This document shows positions 57,007 through 64,000 of a stretch of 64,000 bases of DNA, one piece after another (the stretch's first letter is position 1; each line of letters starts with the position of its first letter). The notes under the pieces are model-generated. The model was not told where the DNA came from and made no database searches. It saw only the letters and a list, made by a program, of their open reading frames with translations. The position numbers and the translations under genes were made by a program. This DNA is from Promicromonospora sp. MEB111 (lineage in GTDB: Bacteria; Actinomycetota; Actinomycetes; Actinomycetales; Cellulomonadaceae). Location: NCBI RefSeq assembly GCF_030209445.1, contig NZ_JARVSD010000016.1:124001-188000 (forward strand), given 5' to 3'.

Positions 57007-57477
57007 GTGGAGATCATCGTGACCAGCGTCGTCGCCGTCCTCGGAACCCTGCTCGGCTCGCTCGCGACCCACTACTTCCAGCGCCGCAACCGCGCCGACG
57101 CGGAGCGCTTCGAACGCGGCGAACGCCTCCGGCAGGAGCGGGTGAGCGCGTACACGACGTTCGGCGGCGCGCTGGTCAACCTGCGCCGCGCGCAGATCGA
57201 CCGCTGGTTCGCCGAGCACAGGGAGCGCGCCGGGGACCCCGAAGCGCTCAGGTACGAGAGCTACCGGATGCGCACGAACGCGCTCGAAGCGCTCTTCCGG
57301 GTCCAGCTCGTGACGGAGTCCAAGGAGCTGATCGAACTGGGCCAGCAGGCGATGGACGACATCGACCTCCTCACGGCCGACCTCCCGGCCGAGGAGCTCA
57401 GCGATGCCCGCGACGCAGCCAAGGCAAGCATCTTTCGTTTCGTGGAGACAGCCCGCAAGCACGTCGAGGTGGCATAG
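57007..57477 (+). CDS. Small N-terminally anchored membrane protein, unknown
   Basis: A 156-aa protein with one N-terminal hydrophobic helix (IIVTSVVAVLGTLLGSLATHYF) and a strongly charged helical remainder (RRNRADAERFERGERLRQER) that may form a coiled coil, ending EELSDARDAAKASIFRFVET. Such proteins are common in actinobacteria near mobile or toxin-related genes, but I do not recognise a function. The start GTG 57007 follows a candidate -10; an in-frame TTG at 56995 is also possible. Its last 80 bp overlap the 3' end of the GGDEF gene on the other strand. Confidence 0.6.
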   Translation: MEIIVTSVVAVLGTLLGSLATHYFQRRNRADAERFERGERLRQERVSAYTTFGGALVNLRRAQIDRWFAEHRERAGDPEALRYESYRMRTNALEALFRVQLVTESKELIELGQQAMDDIDLLTADLPAEELSDARDAAKASIFRFVETARKHVEVA

Positions 57478-58336
57478 CTCGCGGGACGCCTCGGTCTGAT
57501 CGCACCCTCGAATCGCCGCGACGAGTTGAAAGTGACGTCCACCTGCGCACTGCAAGCCTGGTCTCTATACCGGTCCAGCCATGTGCCCGGCGTTTGGCCT
57601 GATAGAGCGCGGTATCAGCAGCCCGCATCAGGGCATCGAGTGTCGCCCCCGGCTCCACCGCTGCCATTCCGAGAGACACCGCGACGCTCAACGCAACCCC
57701 GCGTGCTCCGATCGGTCTCCCGATCTCTTCTCGAAGCCTTTCCATACCCTCTGCCTCCGGAACCTCCTGCAGTGCCAGGACGAACTCGTCTCCACCCCAG
57801 CGGCCGATCAGATCGTCAGGCGCAAAATGACGCTGCAGCCGCTCCGCGACGGCCCGCAGCACACGGTCACCCACCTCATGCCCATATGTGTCGTTGATCG
57901 ACTTGAAGGAATCAAGATCCGCGATCAGGACAACAGCGGGAACGATCGGAACGCCATCATCCAGGGCGTGCTCGACACGCCGCGCCCATGCCCCGCGCGC
58001 CCATACCTGGGTAAGCCCGTCATGCTCGGCCAGCAGCAGCCGGCGCTCCGTCTCCCGCAGCCGCCGCATGTGTTCCCCAAGCTGTCGGCGCGCGATGCGG
58101 AGCTCACCTGCGACCTTTGCGGACTGTCTGTCAGCCTCGGCCGCCTTCCGCTCTGCATCAGCCGCACGCTGCTTCGCTGTTCGCAGTCGCAGCCATGTGA
58201 AAGCAATGAGAATCGCGAATGAGAGAGCGACGACAAGCGAGCGATCACGAAGTTCGCGCACCTGGGTCGGGTGCCAACAGCTCATGGAGCAGTGTGTCGC
58301 GCACAACACCACCACCCCCGCAACCGACCGGCACAT
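57398..58336 (-). CDS. Membrane-anchored GGDEF protein (diguanylate cyclase)
   Basis: A 312-aa protein: one membrane helix (LVVALSFAILIAFTWLRL, about residues 34-51), a charged coiled-coil linker (55-105), then a GGDEF domain (about 105-260) with HDGLTQVWARGAW, ADLDSFKSINDTYGHEVGDR and RWGGDEFVLAL; the GGDEF motif at 181-185 is intact. The inhibitory I-site RxxD just before it is replaced by APDD, so product inhibition is probably absent. It should make cyclic di-GMP at the membrane. The last 50 residues (RRWTSLSTRRGDSRV onward) look unlike any domain and overlap the convergent gene, so an old frameshift or lost stop is possible. Base composition is lower than upstream. Confidence 0.82.
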   Translation of the reverse strand: MCRSVAGVVVLCATHCSMSCWHPTQVRELRDRSLVVALSFAILIAFTWLRLRTAKQRAADAERKAAEADRQSAKVAGELRIARRQLGEHMRRLRETERRLLLAEHDGLTQVWARGAWARRVEHALDDGVPIVPAVVLIADLDSFKSINDTYGHEVGDRVLRAVAERLQRHFAPDDLIGRWGGDEFVLALQEVPEAEGMERLREEIGRPIGARGVALSVAVSLGMAAVEPGATLDALMRAADTALYQAKRRAHGWTGIETRLAVRRWTSLSTRRGDSRVRSDRGVPRAMPPRRACGLSPRNERCLPWLRRGHR

Positions 58337-58407: not shown

Positions 58408-58776
58408 TCAGCGACCGCCGCGCACGCTCTCCAAGCCCAGTCGCAGACCTTCGGGTAGTTCCTCGACGATCTCGCTACCCTGCTGCTCTGGTCCCGGAAG
58501 CTGGAGGAGGAACGATGCCTTGATCACATTGTCGACATCCGGGTCGCCACGTATGAACCAGCCATCCAGAAACGCGAGCAGCGCACGCCAATCGAGCTCG
58601 ACGAACTCGCCCGCCTCACTCGCGTTGTAGGCGGCCAGCAACTCGGGAGTGACCTCGACAGCCAGGAACACGTACGCAAATCCATCATTGCCGTCGTCGA
58701 GATAGCCCTCCAGCTGATCTCGGAAGGATGCGAACGTGTTCGCCAGCTCGCGTGCGAAGAGCTCACTGGTCTCCAT
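58408..58776 (-). CDS. Candidate immunity protein for the Rhs toxin
   Basis: A 122-aa acidic soluble protein (many Asp/Glu; motifs ELFARELANTFASFRDQLEG, YVFLAVEVTPELLAAYNASE, LDWRALLAFLDGWFIRGDPD). Its ATG 58776 overlaps the Rhs stop codon (TGATG), the standard place and coupling for the immunity gene of a polymorphic toxin. I do not recognise the family. Codon use is less GC-biased than the rest of the window, as in the toxin tip. The function is inferred only from position, size, charge and composition. Confidence 0.7.
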   Translation of the reverse strand: METSELFARELANTFASFRDQLEGYLDDGNDGFAYVFLAVEVTPELLAAYNASEAGEFVELDWRALLAFLDGWFIRGDPDVDNVIKASFLLQLPGPEQQGSEIVEELPEGLRLGLESVRGGR

Positions 58777-61700
58777 CAGCACCCCACCCCGTAGTCGCCC
58801 CATGAACCCTTGTACCTGCCCGCGTGTGCATCGTCGATCGCCTGGACCATTCCTTCCGCGATCTCACGATCACGGGGACTGAGCACGATGGCCTGCCTCC
58901 TGCCGCCCTTCGGCTTGTGAGTCGCGGTTCCCGCCAGCATGCTCACCAGTCTGGCCCGGTACGGGGCGGTGCTGAGCACGTGATCCGTATTGTTCACCAG
59001 CTGCCCGGTAAGAACCTGGTGGTTGGCTGCGGCCAGAGCCGTTCCATCACCGATGGCATCCGCACTGCCGACACCGTGCGACATCGCATTCACGAGGTTC
59101 TGCAGGAAGGGGTTCTCAAGACTGTTGTGAACCAGTACCGCAGCGTCATCGACGCCCGAGGACACGTAGAAGGTGTGGTCCTGGTCCACGGTGAGGTTGT
59201 GCACCGTCGCGTGCTCGCGCCCGATGTCGACGTGCACCACCTGGACCCATGTACCGGCGCTGGTCTTGAGCCACTGGCCGGACCGGAGATCGATCGCCTC
59301 GACCCACATCCGCTTCTCCGGGCTCCAGAACGGGTGCCCGTCGGTAGCCACGATCTTCTGTTTGTCGCCGGCAGCGTCCACAACCGTGAGCGTGACCAGG
59401 TTCTTTTCACCAGTGCCTGTGATGTGCGCGGTGACGAGACGACTGCCCGCCAGGTCGCCGGTCGTCTCACCGGCAGCCAGAACCTCGTCGCCTGGCTCGA
59501 CGTTCTCAATCGGCTTTCGGGCACCATTCGCTAGCAGGACGAGAGTGCCTGGCAGGAAACTGTTGACCGGACAGCTCGGCGCCGGTTCGTTGACCTTTCC
59601 TGTGTCACCCTTGCCGGTGGTGTCAGCCTTCTTCTTCGCAGCGTCAGCGCGTGCCTTGGCCTTCGCCTGGGCCGCGAGCTGTTTGACCTTCGCGTCCGCC
59701 GCAGCCTTCGCCTTGGCCGCCTTCGCCGCAGCCTCCCGGGCTGCCTTCGCGGCCGCCGCCTTCGCGGCTTCAGCGGCCTGTTTCGCCTTCTTGGCGCCGG
59801 AGAGGATCTTCTGCGCCCACTTCAGCTCGCTGGAGAAGGTCAGCACGGCCTTGCCGGCCTTGTAGATGGCCTCACCGATCTTCGCCGCCTTGAAGATCTT
59901 GCCCCAGGGCAGCGCACCGACGACGAGCATCACGCACGCGCCGAGGTCGCCGTTCAGGCAGCTCATCAGGTCGTTGATCCCGAGGAACTCCATGAGGATC
60001 TGCCCGCCGGCCTCCAGGATGACGTCGAGCATCGACTTGCCCTGAAGCTGCTGCGCCTTGGCCACGTCCTCGGCGCTCGGGCCTTCGACCTCCGCGCCGG
60101 GATCGTTCGGGTTGGACGTGGTGTCCGCGCCGGTGGGGCTCTCGGTGGTGCCGCCGCCCGTCGGACCCTCGATCTCCCGCTCGCCCGTCGGGTCCGTGAA
60201 CACCATCGGGTTGTTGCCCGCGTACGCGTACGGCGAGGATCCGATCGGCTGCGCGCCCGCCGGGTCCATCGACGAGAACCGCCCCGTGCCCGGGTCGTAG
60301 TTCCGCGCCCGCATCGCGTAGTTGCCCTCGCCCGTCGTCGGGTCGAGGTACGCGCCCGCGAACCGCATCGGGTTCTTGATCGTGTCGCCGGGCCGGGCGT
60401 CCGCCAGCGGTCCGACGCCGGTCAGCGTCGCGCCGTCGGCCGAGGCTCCGTCACCAGAGGCCGTGTCGCCTGAGGCGTCCTCGCCGGCAGCACCCCCCGC
60501 CGCCTCGGCAACCGCCCCGGCGAGCGTCGCCCCCTGCCGCGGGTTGCCGAACGGGTCGTAGTCGTACCCCTCCTCGACCTGACCGTCGGCCGAGAGCATG
60601 TTCGCCACGCCGCCCAGCCAGTCGTGCGTGTAGACGTGCGCCCCGCCCTGCGTCTCCAGCAGCGCGAGCGGTTCGTCCGTGGGCCCGTAGGCGAAGGCCT
60701 GCCGGCCCTGCACCACGCCGTTCACGTCCGTCAGGGTGTCGACGGCGATGTTCTCCAGCGACCCGTTGATGTCCCACGACCAGTGCCGGGTCTTCGCGCC
60801 CGCGCCGACACCCGTGATCGCGTCCAGGCGCATCCGCGTCGCGTCGTAGGTGTAGTTCGTCCGCACCCCGCCCACGGTCGCCCGGGCCAGCGTGCTGTCC
60901 AGGTTGTACTCGAGGCGGTCGTCGCCCGCGCGTGTCTGGTTGCCCAGCAGGTCGTAGCCGTACTCCTTGCGCTCGACGTCCGGCCGGCCGTCCTTGGTGC
61001 CGAACGTGACCTCCCGCAGCAGCTGGCTCGCGTGGTCGTAGGTGTACCGCGTCAGGTCGTCGCCGGCCGTGCCGGTCCGCTTCTGCTCGGTCCGGTTGCC
61101 CAGCAGGTCGTACTCGTACGAGATCCGGCCGGCGGCCTTGCTCCTCGGTCCGCACTCGTGCGCCGCGTAGCAGGCGTCCGTCACACGGTTCGCGTCGTCG
61201 TACGCGTACGCGACCCCCTCGGTGACGCCGCCGCGCGTGGTCATGACCTTCGTCGGGTTGCCCACCTCGTCGAGCGTCAGGTCGAACGCGGACACCGGGT
61301 CCTGCACGCCGTCCACCGGGTCCCCGGTGCGCTCGGTGCCGATCGAGGTGAGCCGACCTGCGTCGTCGTACGCCCGTTCCTCGGTCAGGCCCGTGGTCGC
61401 CGGCAGCGTCGTCGCCGTCCGGCGTCCGGCGACGTCGTACGCGTACTCCCAGCGCGCGCTGTTCGCGCCCACCGAACCGCCGGCCGCCGTCGTGGAGGCG
61501 AGCCGCGAGTCGTCGTCGTACGTCGAGGTGATCGTCGTGCCGTCGGGGTAGGTGCGGTCGGTGATGTTGCCGCGCTGGTCGTACCCGTAGGTGAAGGTCT
61601 CGGTGGCCTGGTTCGCCTCCTCCCGGACCACCTTGGTGATCTGGTCCTCGTCGTCGTACGTCACGGTGCGCACACCCAGCGGGTCGCCGTACGACGTCGT

Positions 61701-64000
61701 CCGGTCCTTCGCGTCGTACCCGTACGTGTACGCGGGCCCGCCCGAACCCACCTGCTGGCTGGTCAGCCGGCTGCGCAGGTCGTACACCGAGGTGATCGTG
61801 CGCTCGGCCCGCTCGGCATCGCTCAGGTCGTCCAGGTCCTCGCGCCGGTCCGTCGTGATGCTCGAGACGGCGTTCGACTCGGCGTCGTACCCCACGTGCG
61901 TGGTCCGGCCCAGCGGGTCGGTGGTGGCCGTCGGGCGGCCGGCGTCGTCGTAGGTGACCTGCGTGCGCCCGCCCTGCGGGTCGCGCACGCCGACCACGCG
62001 GCCGTCGTCGTCGTACGCGAGCACCGTCGCGAAGGCCTGCGAGAACAGCGGCAGCCTCGGCGCGTCCGGCTGGCGCACGTGGCTCACCTGGTCGTCGTCG
62101 CGGTAGGCCACGTAGGTGGTCCCGCCGCGCGCGTCCGTCACCTCGGTCGGGCGGCTGTTCGCGTCGTAGGTGGTCGACGTCGTGTTGCCGAGCGGGTCGA
62201 TCTCGCGCACCCGGTTGCCCGCCAGGTCGTACTCGTAGCGGGTGGTGAAGCGCGCCTTGTCGGCGCCCTCGACGTTGCCGCGCGGCTCCGTCACCGACGC
62301 GAGCAGCCCGTCGTCGGTGTACGCGTACGTCGTGACACCGCCGGTCGGCGAGATCTCCTTGATCTTGTTGCCCGCCGCGTCGTACTCGGTGCGCGTCGTC
62401 TTGTCGCCGGCGTCGGTGCGCGTCGTCTGCCGGCCGTTCTTGTCGTACCCCATCGTGGTGGTGCGGCCCTTGGTGTCCGTCACGGAGCTGACCTGGCCGG
62501 TGTTGCTCCGCTCGAAGCTGGACGTCTTGTTCAGCTCGTTGATCGACGCCGTCGTCCGGTCCAGGGCGTCGACCTTGATGTCGCGGTCCACGTGCTCGCC
62601 GCCCGGGTACGGCATGCGCATCCGGACCGGGTTGTCGTTGGCGTCGTAGAAGTACTCCGTGGTGAAGTCCGCCCGGTCGGCGCCGGGCACGTTGCCGCGC
62701 GGCGAGGTCACGGTCTTGACCAGGCCCTTCGCGTCGTACGTGTACGACGTCGTCAGGTCGTCGCCCCGCATCCGCACGCCCTCGGACTTGCGCCGGCCGG
62801 CCGCCGTGTACCCGAACACGAGCACCCGGCCGCCCGCCTCGACCTTCGACTGGAGGCCGTTGTCGAGGTAGTGGTACCTGCTGACCACGCCCTCGGGCGA
62901 GATCTCGCGGGCGAGCCGGCCCACGTCGTCGAACACCGACCGCCAGCCGTGGGTCTTGCCCGGCTCCTCGACCTCGACCACGCGGTCCTGCTCGTCGTAG
63001 TGCGTCTCGGTGGTGTAGCGCCGGCGGTCGCGCGGGTCCGCGGTGCCGCGCGGGTCGGTCTGCGCCACCTGGCGCCCGGTCCTGTCGTAGAAGAGCTCGC
63101 TGCGGCGCCCCTCCGGCGAGACGACGGCGGACAGCAGCCCCGCGTTCTCCTCGCCGTCCGGCAGGTACTCGTAGCGCGTGACCTTGTCCCGCTGGTCCGT
63201 CGTGGAAGTGCGCAGGCCGCGGTCGTCGTACTCGTGCGTGATGTCGTTGCCCTCGGCGTCGACGCTGCGCACCAGCTCGTCGAACGCGTTGTACGTGTTC
63301 TTCCAGACGTTCCCGTTCGCGTCGGTGAACTCGATCGGGTTGTTCCGGTCGTCGTACCTCGTCTTCTCGTCGAAGCCCTGCGGCGCCACGGCCTGCGTGG
63401 GGTTGCCCTGCGCGTCGAAGCGGACCACGTGCTGGTACTGGTTGCCGTTGACCACGAGGTTGCGGTCCAGCCGCGCGTTGTACCGGTGGTTGTCGGCGTC
63501 GCCGGTGCTGCGCTGGCTGTAGAGCAGCACGTTGCCGCGGTAGCCGTCGTAGACGGAGACGTCGTCGGCGTCGGTGCTGCGCGCCTCCTGCTTGTCCGCG
63601 TCCCACGCGAACGTCATCTCGGCGCCCACCCCGTCGCGCTGGGCGACGACGCGTCCGCCGGTGCCGTACTCGTTCTGCACCGCGACCACGTCGTGCGGGT
63701 CGACCACCTCGGCCAGGCGCCCCTCAGCGTCGTACCGGTACTCCCAGACGTTCCCGCGGGCGTCCTTCACCTTCGCCAGCAGGCCGTCGGCGTACTCGAA
63801 GCGCACCTGGCGCCGGTCCGGCAGCACCACCTTGTCGATCAGCCCGTCGGCCAGGTGCGCGACGGCGGTACGCCCCGACGCGTCGGTGATCCTGACCTCG
63901 TCACGGTCCACGTCGTGGCCCTTGTCGCGGCCCCTGTCGTCGACCTCGACGTAGGCCAGGCGCACGCCGTCGTCGCGCGGGCTGAGCACGGCCGCGAGCC
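58776..64000 (-). CDS. Rhs/YD-repeat polymorphic toxin with Hint domain and novel C-terminal tip (5' end outside window)
   Basis: About 1740 residues are visible; the frame stays open past the right edge. From the N-terminal side there are some 1250 residues of YD repeats (YDxxGR-like: YDDRGLRTSTTD, YDYDPFGNPRQG), which form the Rhs cocoon, then the core end RNYDPGTGRFSSMDPAG and PMVFTDPTG. A linker with a hydrophobic patch (ACVMLVVGALPWGKIFKAAK) and an Ala/Lys-rich stretch (59590-59830) follows, then a Hint domain from CPVNSFLPGTLVLLANG (Cys codon 59571-59573) to VLVHN (59124), and finally a 115-aa tip (59123-58779) with HKPKGGRRQAIVLSPRDREI and ending KGSWGDYGVGC. Hint should cleave the tip free. 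I do not recognise the tip's activity. Confidence 0.9.
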   Translation of the reverse strand, partial: LAAVLSPRDDGVRLAYVEVDDRGRDKGHDVDRDEVRITDASGRTAVAHLADGLIDKVVLPDRRQVRFEYADGLLAKVKDARGNVWEYRYDAEGRLAEVVDPHDVVAVQNEYGTGGRVVAQRDGVGAEMTFAWDADKQEARSTDADDVSVYDGYRGNVLLYSQRSTGDADNHRYNARLDRNLVVNGNQYQHVVRFDAQGNPTQAVAPQGFDEKTRYDDRNNPIEFTDANGNVWKNTYNAFDELVRSVDAEGNDITHEYDDRGLRTSTTDQRDKVTRYEYLPDGEENAGLLSAVVSPEGRRSELFYDRTGRQVAQTDPRGTADPRDRRRYTTETHYDEQDRVVEVEEPGKTHGWRSVFDDVGRLAREISPEGVVSRYHYLDNGLQSKVEAGGRVLVFGYTAAGRRKSEGVRMRGDDLTTSYTYDAKGLVKTVTSPRGNVPGADRADFTTEYFYDANDNPVRMRMPYPGGEHVDRDIKVDALDRTTASINELNKTSSFERSNTGQVSSVTDTKGRTTTMGYDKNGRQTTRTDAGDKTTRTEYDAAGNKIKEISPTGGVTTYAYTDDGLLASVTEPRGNVEGADKARFTTRYEYDLAGNRVREIDPLGNTTSTTYDANSRPTEVTDARGGTTYVAYRDDDQVSHVRQPDAPRLPLFSQAFATVLAYDDDGRVVGVRDPQGGRTQVTYDDAGRPTATTDPLGRTTHVGYDAESNAVSSITTDRREDLDDLSDAERAERTITSVYDLRSRLTSQQVGSGGPAYTYGYDAKDRTTSYGDPLGVRTVTYDDEDQITKVVREEANQATETFTYGYDQRGNITDRTYPDGTTITSTYDDDSRLASTTAAGGSVGANSARWEYAYDVAGRRTATTLPATTGLTEERAYDDAGRLTSIGTERTGDPVDGVQDPVSAFDLTLDEVGNPTKVMTTRGGVTEGVAYAYDDANRVTDACYAAHECGPRSKAAGRISYEYDLLGNRTEQKRTGTAGDDLTRYTYDHASQLLREVTFGTKDGRPDVERKEYGYDLLGNQTRAGDDRLEYNLDSTLARATVGGVRTNYTYDATRMRLDAITGVGAGAKTRHWSWDINGSLENIAVDTLTDVNGVVQGRQAFAYGPTDEPLALLETQGGAHVYTHDWLGGVANMLSADGQVEEGYDYDPFGNPRQGATLAGAVAEAAGGAAGEDASGDTASGDGASADGATLTGVGPLADARPGDTIKNPMRFAGAYLDPTTGEGNYAMRARNYDPGTGRFSSMDPAGAQPIGSSPYAYAGNNPMVFTDPTGEREIEGPTGGGTTESPTGADTTSNPNDPGAEVEGPSAEDVAKAQQLQGKSMLDVILEAGGQILMEFLGINDLMSCLNGDLGACVMLVVGALPWGKIFKAAKIGEAIYKAGKAVLTFSSELKWAQKILSGAKKAKQAAEAAKAAAAKAAREAAAKAAKAKAAADAKVKQLAAQAKAKARADAAKKKADTTGKGDTGKVNEPAPSCPVNSFLPGTLVLLANGARKPIENVEPGDEVLAAGETTGDLAGSRLVTAHITGTGEKNLVTLTVVDAAGDKQKIVATDGHPFWSPEKRMWVEAIDLRSGQWLKTSAGTWVQVVHVDIGREHATVHNLTVDQDHTFYVSSGVDDAAVLVHNSLENPFLQNLVNAMSHGVGSADAIGDGTALAAANHQVLTGQLVNNTDHVLSTAPYRARLVSMLAGTATHKPKGGRRQAIVLSPRDREIAEGMVQAIDDAHAGRYKGSWGDYGVGC

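What the first reader, a model, noticed from the sequence alone, without database searches (positions are those of the whole stretch)
58408..59123. Unrecognised Rhs toxin tip with an overlapping immunity-like gene
Seen: the last 115 residues after a complete Hint domain (Cys...VLVHN) match no toxin family I know; motifs include NHQVLTGQLVNN, ATHKPKGGRRQAIVLSPRD and a C-terminal KGSWGDYGVGC. A 122-aa acidic ORF starts on the stop codon (TGATG). Known: polymorphic toxins carry the toxin after Hint and the immunity gene directly downstream. Inference: this is a new or rare toxin/immunity pair.
Basis: partly seen in the sequence, partly recalled or inferred. Interest (0 to 1): 0.85.

Follow-up and report, generated by a model that had tools for sequence, protein, structure and literature searches.

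The report
Unnamed bacterial toxin–immunity gene pair
The end of a large secreted Rhs protein of a soil actinomycete carries a small, mostly helical toxin-like domain with no name in the family libraries searched, and the gene that overlaps its end is related to a family of unknown function that travels with this domain across distant bacteria and some phages, so it is most likely the antidote.

Summary
In detail: on the minus strand an Rhs/Hint protein ends in a 115-residue tip (58776-59123), and its stop codon overlaps (TGATG) a 122-aa acidic ORF (58408-58776). The tip has no significant hit in Pfam, NCBIfam, PHROGs or PADLOC. The small ORF is related to Pfam DUF7674 (E 2.3e-5; 24.9 bits, below the 27-bit cut-off). 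Relatives of the tip end actinobacterial Rhs/Hint proteins, a Serratia PT-VENN protein, Proteus and E. coli Rhs proteins and a phage minor-head (MuF-type) protein. The protein encoded next matches DUF7674 in 28 of 31 loci at E up to 1 (25 of 31 at E up to 0.001). Tip and neighbour distances correlate (Mantel r 0.68, 0 of 9999 permutations). Seven same-genus genomes share the Rhs core but carry six different tips. Both AlphaFold models are confident (pLDDT 89.5, 88.2), mostly helical, without a clear PDB match. H48 and G27 are invariant in 26 of 26 tips. Best reading: a new, unnamed family of a known kind (polymorphic toxins), with DUF7674-type proteins as its immunity proteins. The activity is unknown; a nuclease is my leading guess (about 0.4). 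Toxicity and binding could not be tested here.

The parts
58776..59123 (-). 115-residue toxin tip (with stop codon) after the Hint domain; conserved G25-x-G27, E/Q36, G40, H48 (invariant) and D/E85
   Evidence: no Pfam hit; homologues; conservation over 26 tips; AlphaFold model
58408..58776 (-). 122-aa acidic ORF (pI 4.1), DUF7674-related, predicted immunity protein; start codon overlaps the toxin stop (TGATG); two in-frame earlier starts possible
   Evidence: PF24722 E 2.3e-5, 24.9 bits, below cut-off 27; of 25 downstream proteins 24 match at E up to 1 and 21 at E up to 0.001; model
59121..59537 (-). PT-HINT pretoxin Hint domain ending in VLVHN, expected to cut the tip free
   Evidence: Pfam PF07591 E 4.5e-19
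60000..63998 (-). RHS repeat part of the same protein; the gene begins outside the window, where a signal-peptide-like start is seen by eye (window coordinate about 65120)
   Evidence: PF05593, 23 stretches, E 4.6e-85; N-terminus read in L069

Best explanation
This is a polymorphic toxin of an actinomycete of the genus Promicromonospora or a near relative. A Sec-exported Rhs shell carries a self-cutting Hint domain and a 115-aa C-terminal toxin. The gene overlapping the toxin's stop codon encodes its immunity protein, a small, acidic, all-helical DUF7674-related protein that binds and blocks the toxin inside the producing cell. The tip belongs to an unnamed family used by several carriers (Rhs/Hint, PT-VENN, a MuF-type phage protein). 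It is probably a small helical enzyme whose active site uses the invariant histidine H48 together with the G-x-G loop and an acidic residue (D/E85); attack on RNA or another nucleic acid is my leading guess (about 0.4). Shown here: domain order, conservation, pairing, co-variation, core-tip swapping, predicted folds. Inferred: toxicity, binding, enzymatic activity, target.
For: Domain order and a signal-peptide-like N-terminus, by eye. Orthologous Rhs cores (81-100% identity) in seven genomes of the genus carry six different tips, each followed by its own next ORF. The tip family sits on other carriers: Rhs and Hint proteins, a PT-VENN protein, a phage minor-head protein with a scaffold gene nearby, E. 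coli Rhs. The protein encoded next matches DUF7674 in 24 of 25 loci at E up to 1 (21 of 25 at E up to 0.001), in the E. coli copy read and in 3 of 5 loci looked at afterwards. The neighbour overlaps the tip gene or starts within 16 bases of its end in 19 of 22 loci, one of them a repeat of another. Mantel r 0.68 over 26 pairs. Neighbour pI 4.1-5.0 in 26 of 26. One locus (L035) has two DUF7674-like stretches in one ORF, by eye. H48 26/26, G27 26/26, G25 25/26, G40 25/26, position 85 D in 23 and E in 3 of 26.
Against: No toxicity or binding test was possible. Only 2 of 6 DUF7674 matches in 396 actinobacterial genomes lie beside a detected tip; the other 4 have none: orphans, or DUF7674 has other partners too. 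Two of five loci looked at afterwards lack a DUF7674 match (L072 has an unmatched small ORF; L071 has a truncated tip), as does L029. Where several ORFs followed a tip I chose the one of DUF7674 type. The window's neighbour is under the Pfam cut-off; by single sequence its best PDB matches are two unsaturated glucuronyl hydrolase chains (E 0.0017 and 0.0075), which I take for chance. The window's tip departs from the family at two conserved places (Q36 where 23 of 26 have E; S51 where 21 of 26 have K), so this copy may be a subfamily or weakened. Its net charge is 0, which does not favour a nucleic-acid binder. The Mantel correlation could partly reflect shared ancestry of whole loci.
Confidence: 0.87

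Rival explanations
1. The tip acts as a metal-independent RNase (for example on tRNA): H48 as general acid or base, G-x-G and helix N-termini holding phosphate, D/E85 assisting.
For: Conserved G-x-G, H48 and D/E85 each lie at or near a helix start in the model. Tips have pI 7 or more in 21 of 26 and neighbours are acidic in 26 of 26. RNase and DNase are named first among the activities of most polymorphic toxins in a passage of PMC5576092.
Against: No fold match to a solved nuclease (weak or missing matches do not exclude one). The window's tip has net charge 0 and 5 of 26 tips have pI below 7. A single invariant histidine does not identify a reaction.
Confidence: 0.4
2. The tip is an enzyme acting on something other than nucleic acid (nucleotide cofactor, protein or cell-wall precursor) using the same conserved residues.
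For: Conserved polar residues without a recognised nuclease fold; several papers in a search listing describe polymorphic toxins acting on NAD or as ADP-ribosyltransferases (listing and abstract starts only).
Against: No match to any such family.
Confidence: 0.35
3. The tip is non-enzymatic, for example membrane-perturbing.
For: Mostly helical; one subfamily (for example L029, L031, L041) carries a C-terminal extension with hydrophobic stretches (by eye).
Against: The window tip has no such extension; the strongest conservation is in glycine, histidine and acidic positions, not in a hydrophobic pattern alone.
Confidence: 0.08
4. DUF7674 proteins are not immunity proteins but chaperones or adaptors for loading or release of the tip.
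For: DUF7674 genes without a detected tip occur (4 of 6 in 396 genomes).
Against: Where paired, the gene lies downstream of the tip and diverges with it, across carriers with unrelated routes including a phage head protein; related cores keep no constant next gene when the tip changes.
Confidence: 0.08
5. The domain is degenerate or non-toxic in this genome.
For: Q36 and S51 depart from the family.
Against: The same residues are kept in P. umidemergens at 82% identity, with the neighbour kept too.
Confidence: 0.1

Closest known systems
Rhs/Hint polymorphic toxins (PMC3482391; passages read)
   Same: Exported Rhs shell, Hint before the tip, interchangeable C-terminal tip, immunity gene downstream
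   Different: The tip has no significant match to a curated toxin family of Pfam or NCBIfam
Pfam PF24722 DUF7674
   Same: Neighbour protein matches it (E 2.3e-5); 24 of 25 downstream proteins of the family do at E up to 1
   Different: Window copy is below the curated cut-off; Pfam calls it a domain of unknown function, and no paper naming it was found
MuF polymorphic toxins of temperate phages (PMC5576092; passages read)
   Same: One relative (L046) is the C-terminus of a phage minor-head protein with a small ORF after it and a scaffold gene next
   Different: The window's carrier is a Sec-type Rhs protein; L046 was not scored against the MuF domain itself
PT-VENN (CdiA-type) toxins
   Same: The Serratia relative follows a PT-VENN pretoxin domain
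   Different: Different carrier and delivery route
All-alpha or mostly-alpha Ntox families of PMC3482391 (Ntox16, Ntox28, Ntox32, Ntox44; table passages)
   Same: Small helical tips with a few conserved polar residues
   Different: Listed motifs differ and no Pfam hit appeared; not excluded by profile-profile comparison

Membership tests
Polymorphic toxin (Rhs/Hint class) | RHS repeats and pretoxin processing domain ahead of the tip | tested here: met
   PF05593 and PF07591
Polymorphic toxin (Rhs/Hint class) | Export signal at the N-terminus | tested here: inconclusive
   Signal-peptide-like start read by eye in L069; no predictor was run
Polymorphic toxin (Rhs/Hint class) | Same core with different tips in related strains | tested here: met
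   Seven orthologous cores, six tips
Polymorphic toxin (Rhs/Hint class) | Tip shared with other toxin carriers | tested here: met
   Rhs, Hint, PT-VENN and phage minor-head carriers
Polymorphic toxin (Rhs/Hint class) | Cognate immunity gene directly downstream | tested here: met
   As conserved pairing; protection itself not tested
Polymorphic toxin (Rhs/Hint class) | The tip kills or stops cells | not testable with these tools
   Needs expression
Pfam DUF7674 (PF24722) | Score over the curated cut-off (27 bits) for the window protein | tested here: not met
   24.9 bits; relatives L018, L020, L022, L070, L073 exceed it. Filed as DUF7674-related, not as a member
Known nuclease toxin folds (BECR, HNH, REase and others) | Structural match to a solved member | tested here: inconclusive
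All-alpha Ntox families | Match to the family profile | tested here: inconclusive
   No Pfam match at E up to 10; HMMER filters and lack of profile-profile search leave distant kinship open

The most novel reading that the evidence does not exclude
The tip is a toxin enzyme of a fold and catalytic arrangement not yet seen in a solved structure (helical, G-x-G loop plus one invariant histidine), shared by secreted Rhs proteins, CDI-type proteins and phage-delivered MuF-type proteins, with DUF7674 as its dedicated immunity family.
Probability: 0.35. Interest if true: 0.65.

Novelty: new member of a known kind. Interest (0 to 1): 0.5.

Why it matters
It gives a likely function (immunity) to a Pfam domain of unknown function and defines an unnamed toxin family that spans Actinomycetota, Pseudomonadota including E. 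coli, and phages. Activity and protection can be tested directly in laboratory E. coli strains, and the conserved histidine gives a precise mutant to test.

Tried and rejected

Other collections: phage records by tblastn, no match with the Proteus and Serratia tips; the window tip was not searched there. Viral contigs: no relative with the window tip, the Serratia tip, A4 or A6; four with A5.

Rows dropped: 14 of 16 matched genomes had weak matches (E 4.3e-4 to 0.0084; one with a stop inside); I looked at two (L003, L005), which by eye fall on metabolic genes, and dropped all 14; none of those 14 genomes matched the profile over the same order (7 of 297). In one search, 123 plasmid records matched and 40 rows were shown: 4 cover the tip (two near-identical Proteus, Kitasatospora, Serratia), one reaches residue 77 (H7, Cronobacter, L021: by eye an Rhs core match with another tip) and 35 match only the Rhs core part of my query (residues 1 to 60 at most); 83 were not listed. 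Repeats not counted as new pairs: L025 (= L017), L032 (= L002), L027 and L028 (= L022 and L023), L024 and L026 (window), L048 (= L030). L022 and L023 were first fetched by a DUF7674 search, which favours the pairing, but the tip profile found them on its own. In one search the one of 25 without DUF7674 is not named by the tool; it is L029's neighbour. In one search only the second half of L035's double neighbour was used.

The large draws score only 11-15 candidates per genome, so 3 of 396, 8 of 394 and 7 of 297 (genomes partly shared) are lower bounds; the genus search (5 of 13) was not cut.

Literature: no paper holds DUF7674 or six chosen motif strings or accessions; Promicromonospora with Rhs gives one listing whose title is not about Rhs toxins. 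The statement that the family is unnamed rests on these searches and the libraries above; most subscription papers and preprints were not searched. Papers: passages of PMC3482391, PMC5576092, PMC7043789, PMC11278526 and PMC7216683; abstract and outline of PMC12700104, PMC13392607 and PMC11699363; others search listing only.

Full report
What is there. The minus-strand frame ending at 58776 encodes RHS repeats, a PT-HINT domain and a final 115-residue tip; the next ORF starts on the stop codon (TGATG) and encodes 122 residues. Outside the window the gene starts with a signal-peptide-like segment, read by eye. The window lies in a 6.2-Mb genome. The closest pair is that of Promicromonospora umidemergens (L017), and the L017 pair recurs letter for letter in a genome of the window's own genus, G298 (L025); so the genus is Promicromonospora or what GTDB joins with it (inference).

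The tip is unnamed. Pfam, PHROGs and PADLOC give nothing and NCBIfam one chance match for the window tip; the E. coli relative gives nothing in NCBIfam and PADLOC and one chance Pfam match, E 0.039. No solved chain matches by sequence beyond chance level.

The tip has relatives: P. umidemergens (82% identity), another genus of the order (42%), genomes of the genus (5 of 13, own included), order (7 of 297), class (8 of 394) and phylum (3 of 396), records of Proteus, Kitasatospora, Serratia and alphaproteobacteria in the plasmid collection, four viral contigs and E. coli (393 of 5,426 genomes have DNA similar to the tip part of the Serratia pair, none over 80% of the whole query). In the three E. 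coli copies looked at, the Rhs gene is annotated as frameshifted or partial; one lies beside an incomplete tssH of a type VI secretion system.

The neighbour goes with the tip. In 22 loci scanned in one script (one a repeat of another) the neighbour overlaps the tip gene or starts within 16 bases of its end in 19; in two more it starts 74-88 bases on and in one about 270 bases on. Where several ORFs were listed I chose the one of DUF7674 type. Of 25 neighbour proteins, 24 match DUF7674 at E up to 1 and 21 at E up to 0.001, the best at 1.3e-17. The E. coli neighbour matches too (E 4.6e-4), and of five further loci, fetched afterwards from the hits, three match (E 7.9e-11, 5.8e-9, 1e-4), one has an unmatched small ORF and one has a truncated tip without a match. 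In all, 28 of 31 at E up to 1 and 25 of 31 at E up to 0.001. Conversely, DUF7674 is scarce: 6 of 396 genomes of the phylum, of which two lie beside a tip and four do not; in 19 near relatives, 3 genomes match and in all 3 the gene lies beside a tip. Pairwise distances of tips and neighbours correlate over 26 pairs (r 0.68; 0 of 9999 permutations as high; r 0.67 without two close copies).

It behaves as a polymorphic toxin. A 417-residue core-plus-Hint query finds seven full-length orthologues in the genus (81-100% identity), followed by six different tips, each with its own next ORF; only G298 shares the window's tip. Genome G301 carries the tip family on another protein with a Hint-like segment and no Rhs part in the stretch read (L023, by eye), while its Rhs orthologue has a different tip (L058). 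Other carriers are a PT-VENN protein, a Hint protein without Rhs match (L002), Rhs proteins and a phage protein that matches a minor head protein (phrog_581, E 1.7e-29) with a scaffold gene next to the pair (phrog_194, E 1.4e-30), much as in the MuF toxins of temperate phages (PMC5576092, passages).

Verdict. A new, unnamed toxin family of a well-known kind, with a likely function for DUF7674. Well supported as a pair; the activity is open.

Noticed in passing
L035 (downstream of its tip): The neighbour is one long ORF (254 aa from its first possible start) with two DUF7674-like stretches, a fused tandem immunity gene by eye.
   Followed up: partly
L029, L031, L037, L041, L042: A subfamily has about 100 or more further residues after the tip domain, with hydrophobic stretches and cysteines near the end (by eye); in L031, L041 and L042 the neighbour lies 74 to about 270 bases on.
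   Followed up: no
L046: The tip family sits at the end of a phage minor-head (MuF-type) protein, with its neighbour gene inserted before the scaffold gene. L045, another viral contig, has the pair too, but the upstream ORF scanned matched no known phage family.
   Followed up: partly
window 58776-59123: Five actinobacterial tips (window, L017, L002, L022, L023) end in a G-x-Y-x-G...G-C tail absent from the other 21 aligned; its role is unknown.
   Followed up: no
L055-L061: Orthologous Rhs cores in the genus carry six tips; some look like deaminase or GIY-YIG-type nuclease tips (recalled motifs, not tested).
   Followed up: no
L053: An E. coli Rhs gene annotated as partial, with this tip and an unbroken neighbour gene, lies beside an incomplete tssH and an ISEc1-family transposase: perhaps decay of a type VI locus with the antidote kept.
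   Followed up: no
L065 (own genome, C33): A second Hint-bearing toxin gene in the window's genome has a different tip that looks restriction-endonuclease-like (recalled motif).
   Followed up: no
window 57398-58336, minus strand: ORF with a GGDEF motif just downstream of the pair (recalled motif; not scanned).
   Followed up: no
L047, L049, L050, L051: DUF7674 genes in actinobacterial genomes without a detectable tip in the stretch held: orphan immunity genes or other partners.
   Followed up: partly
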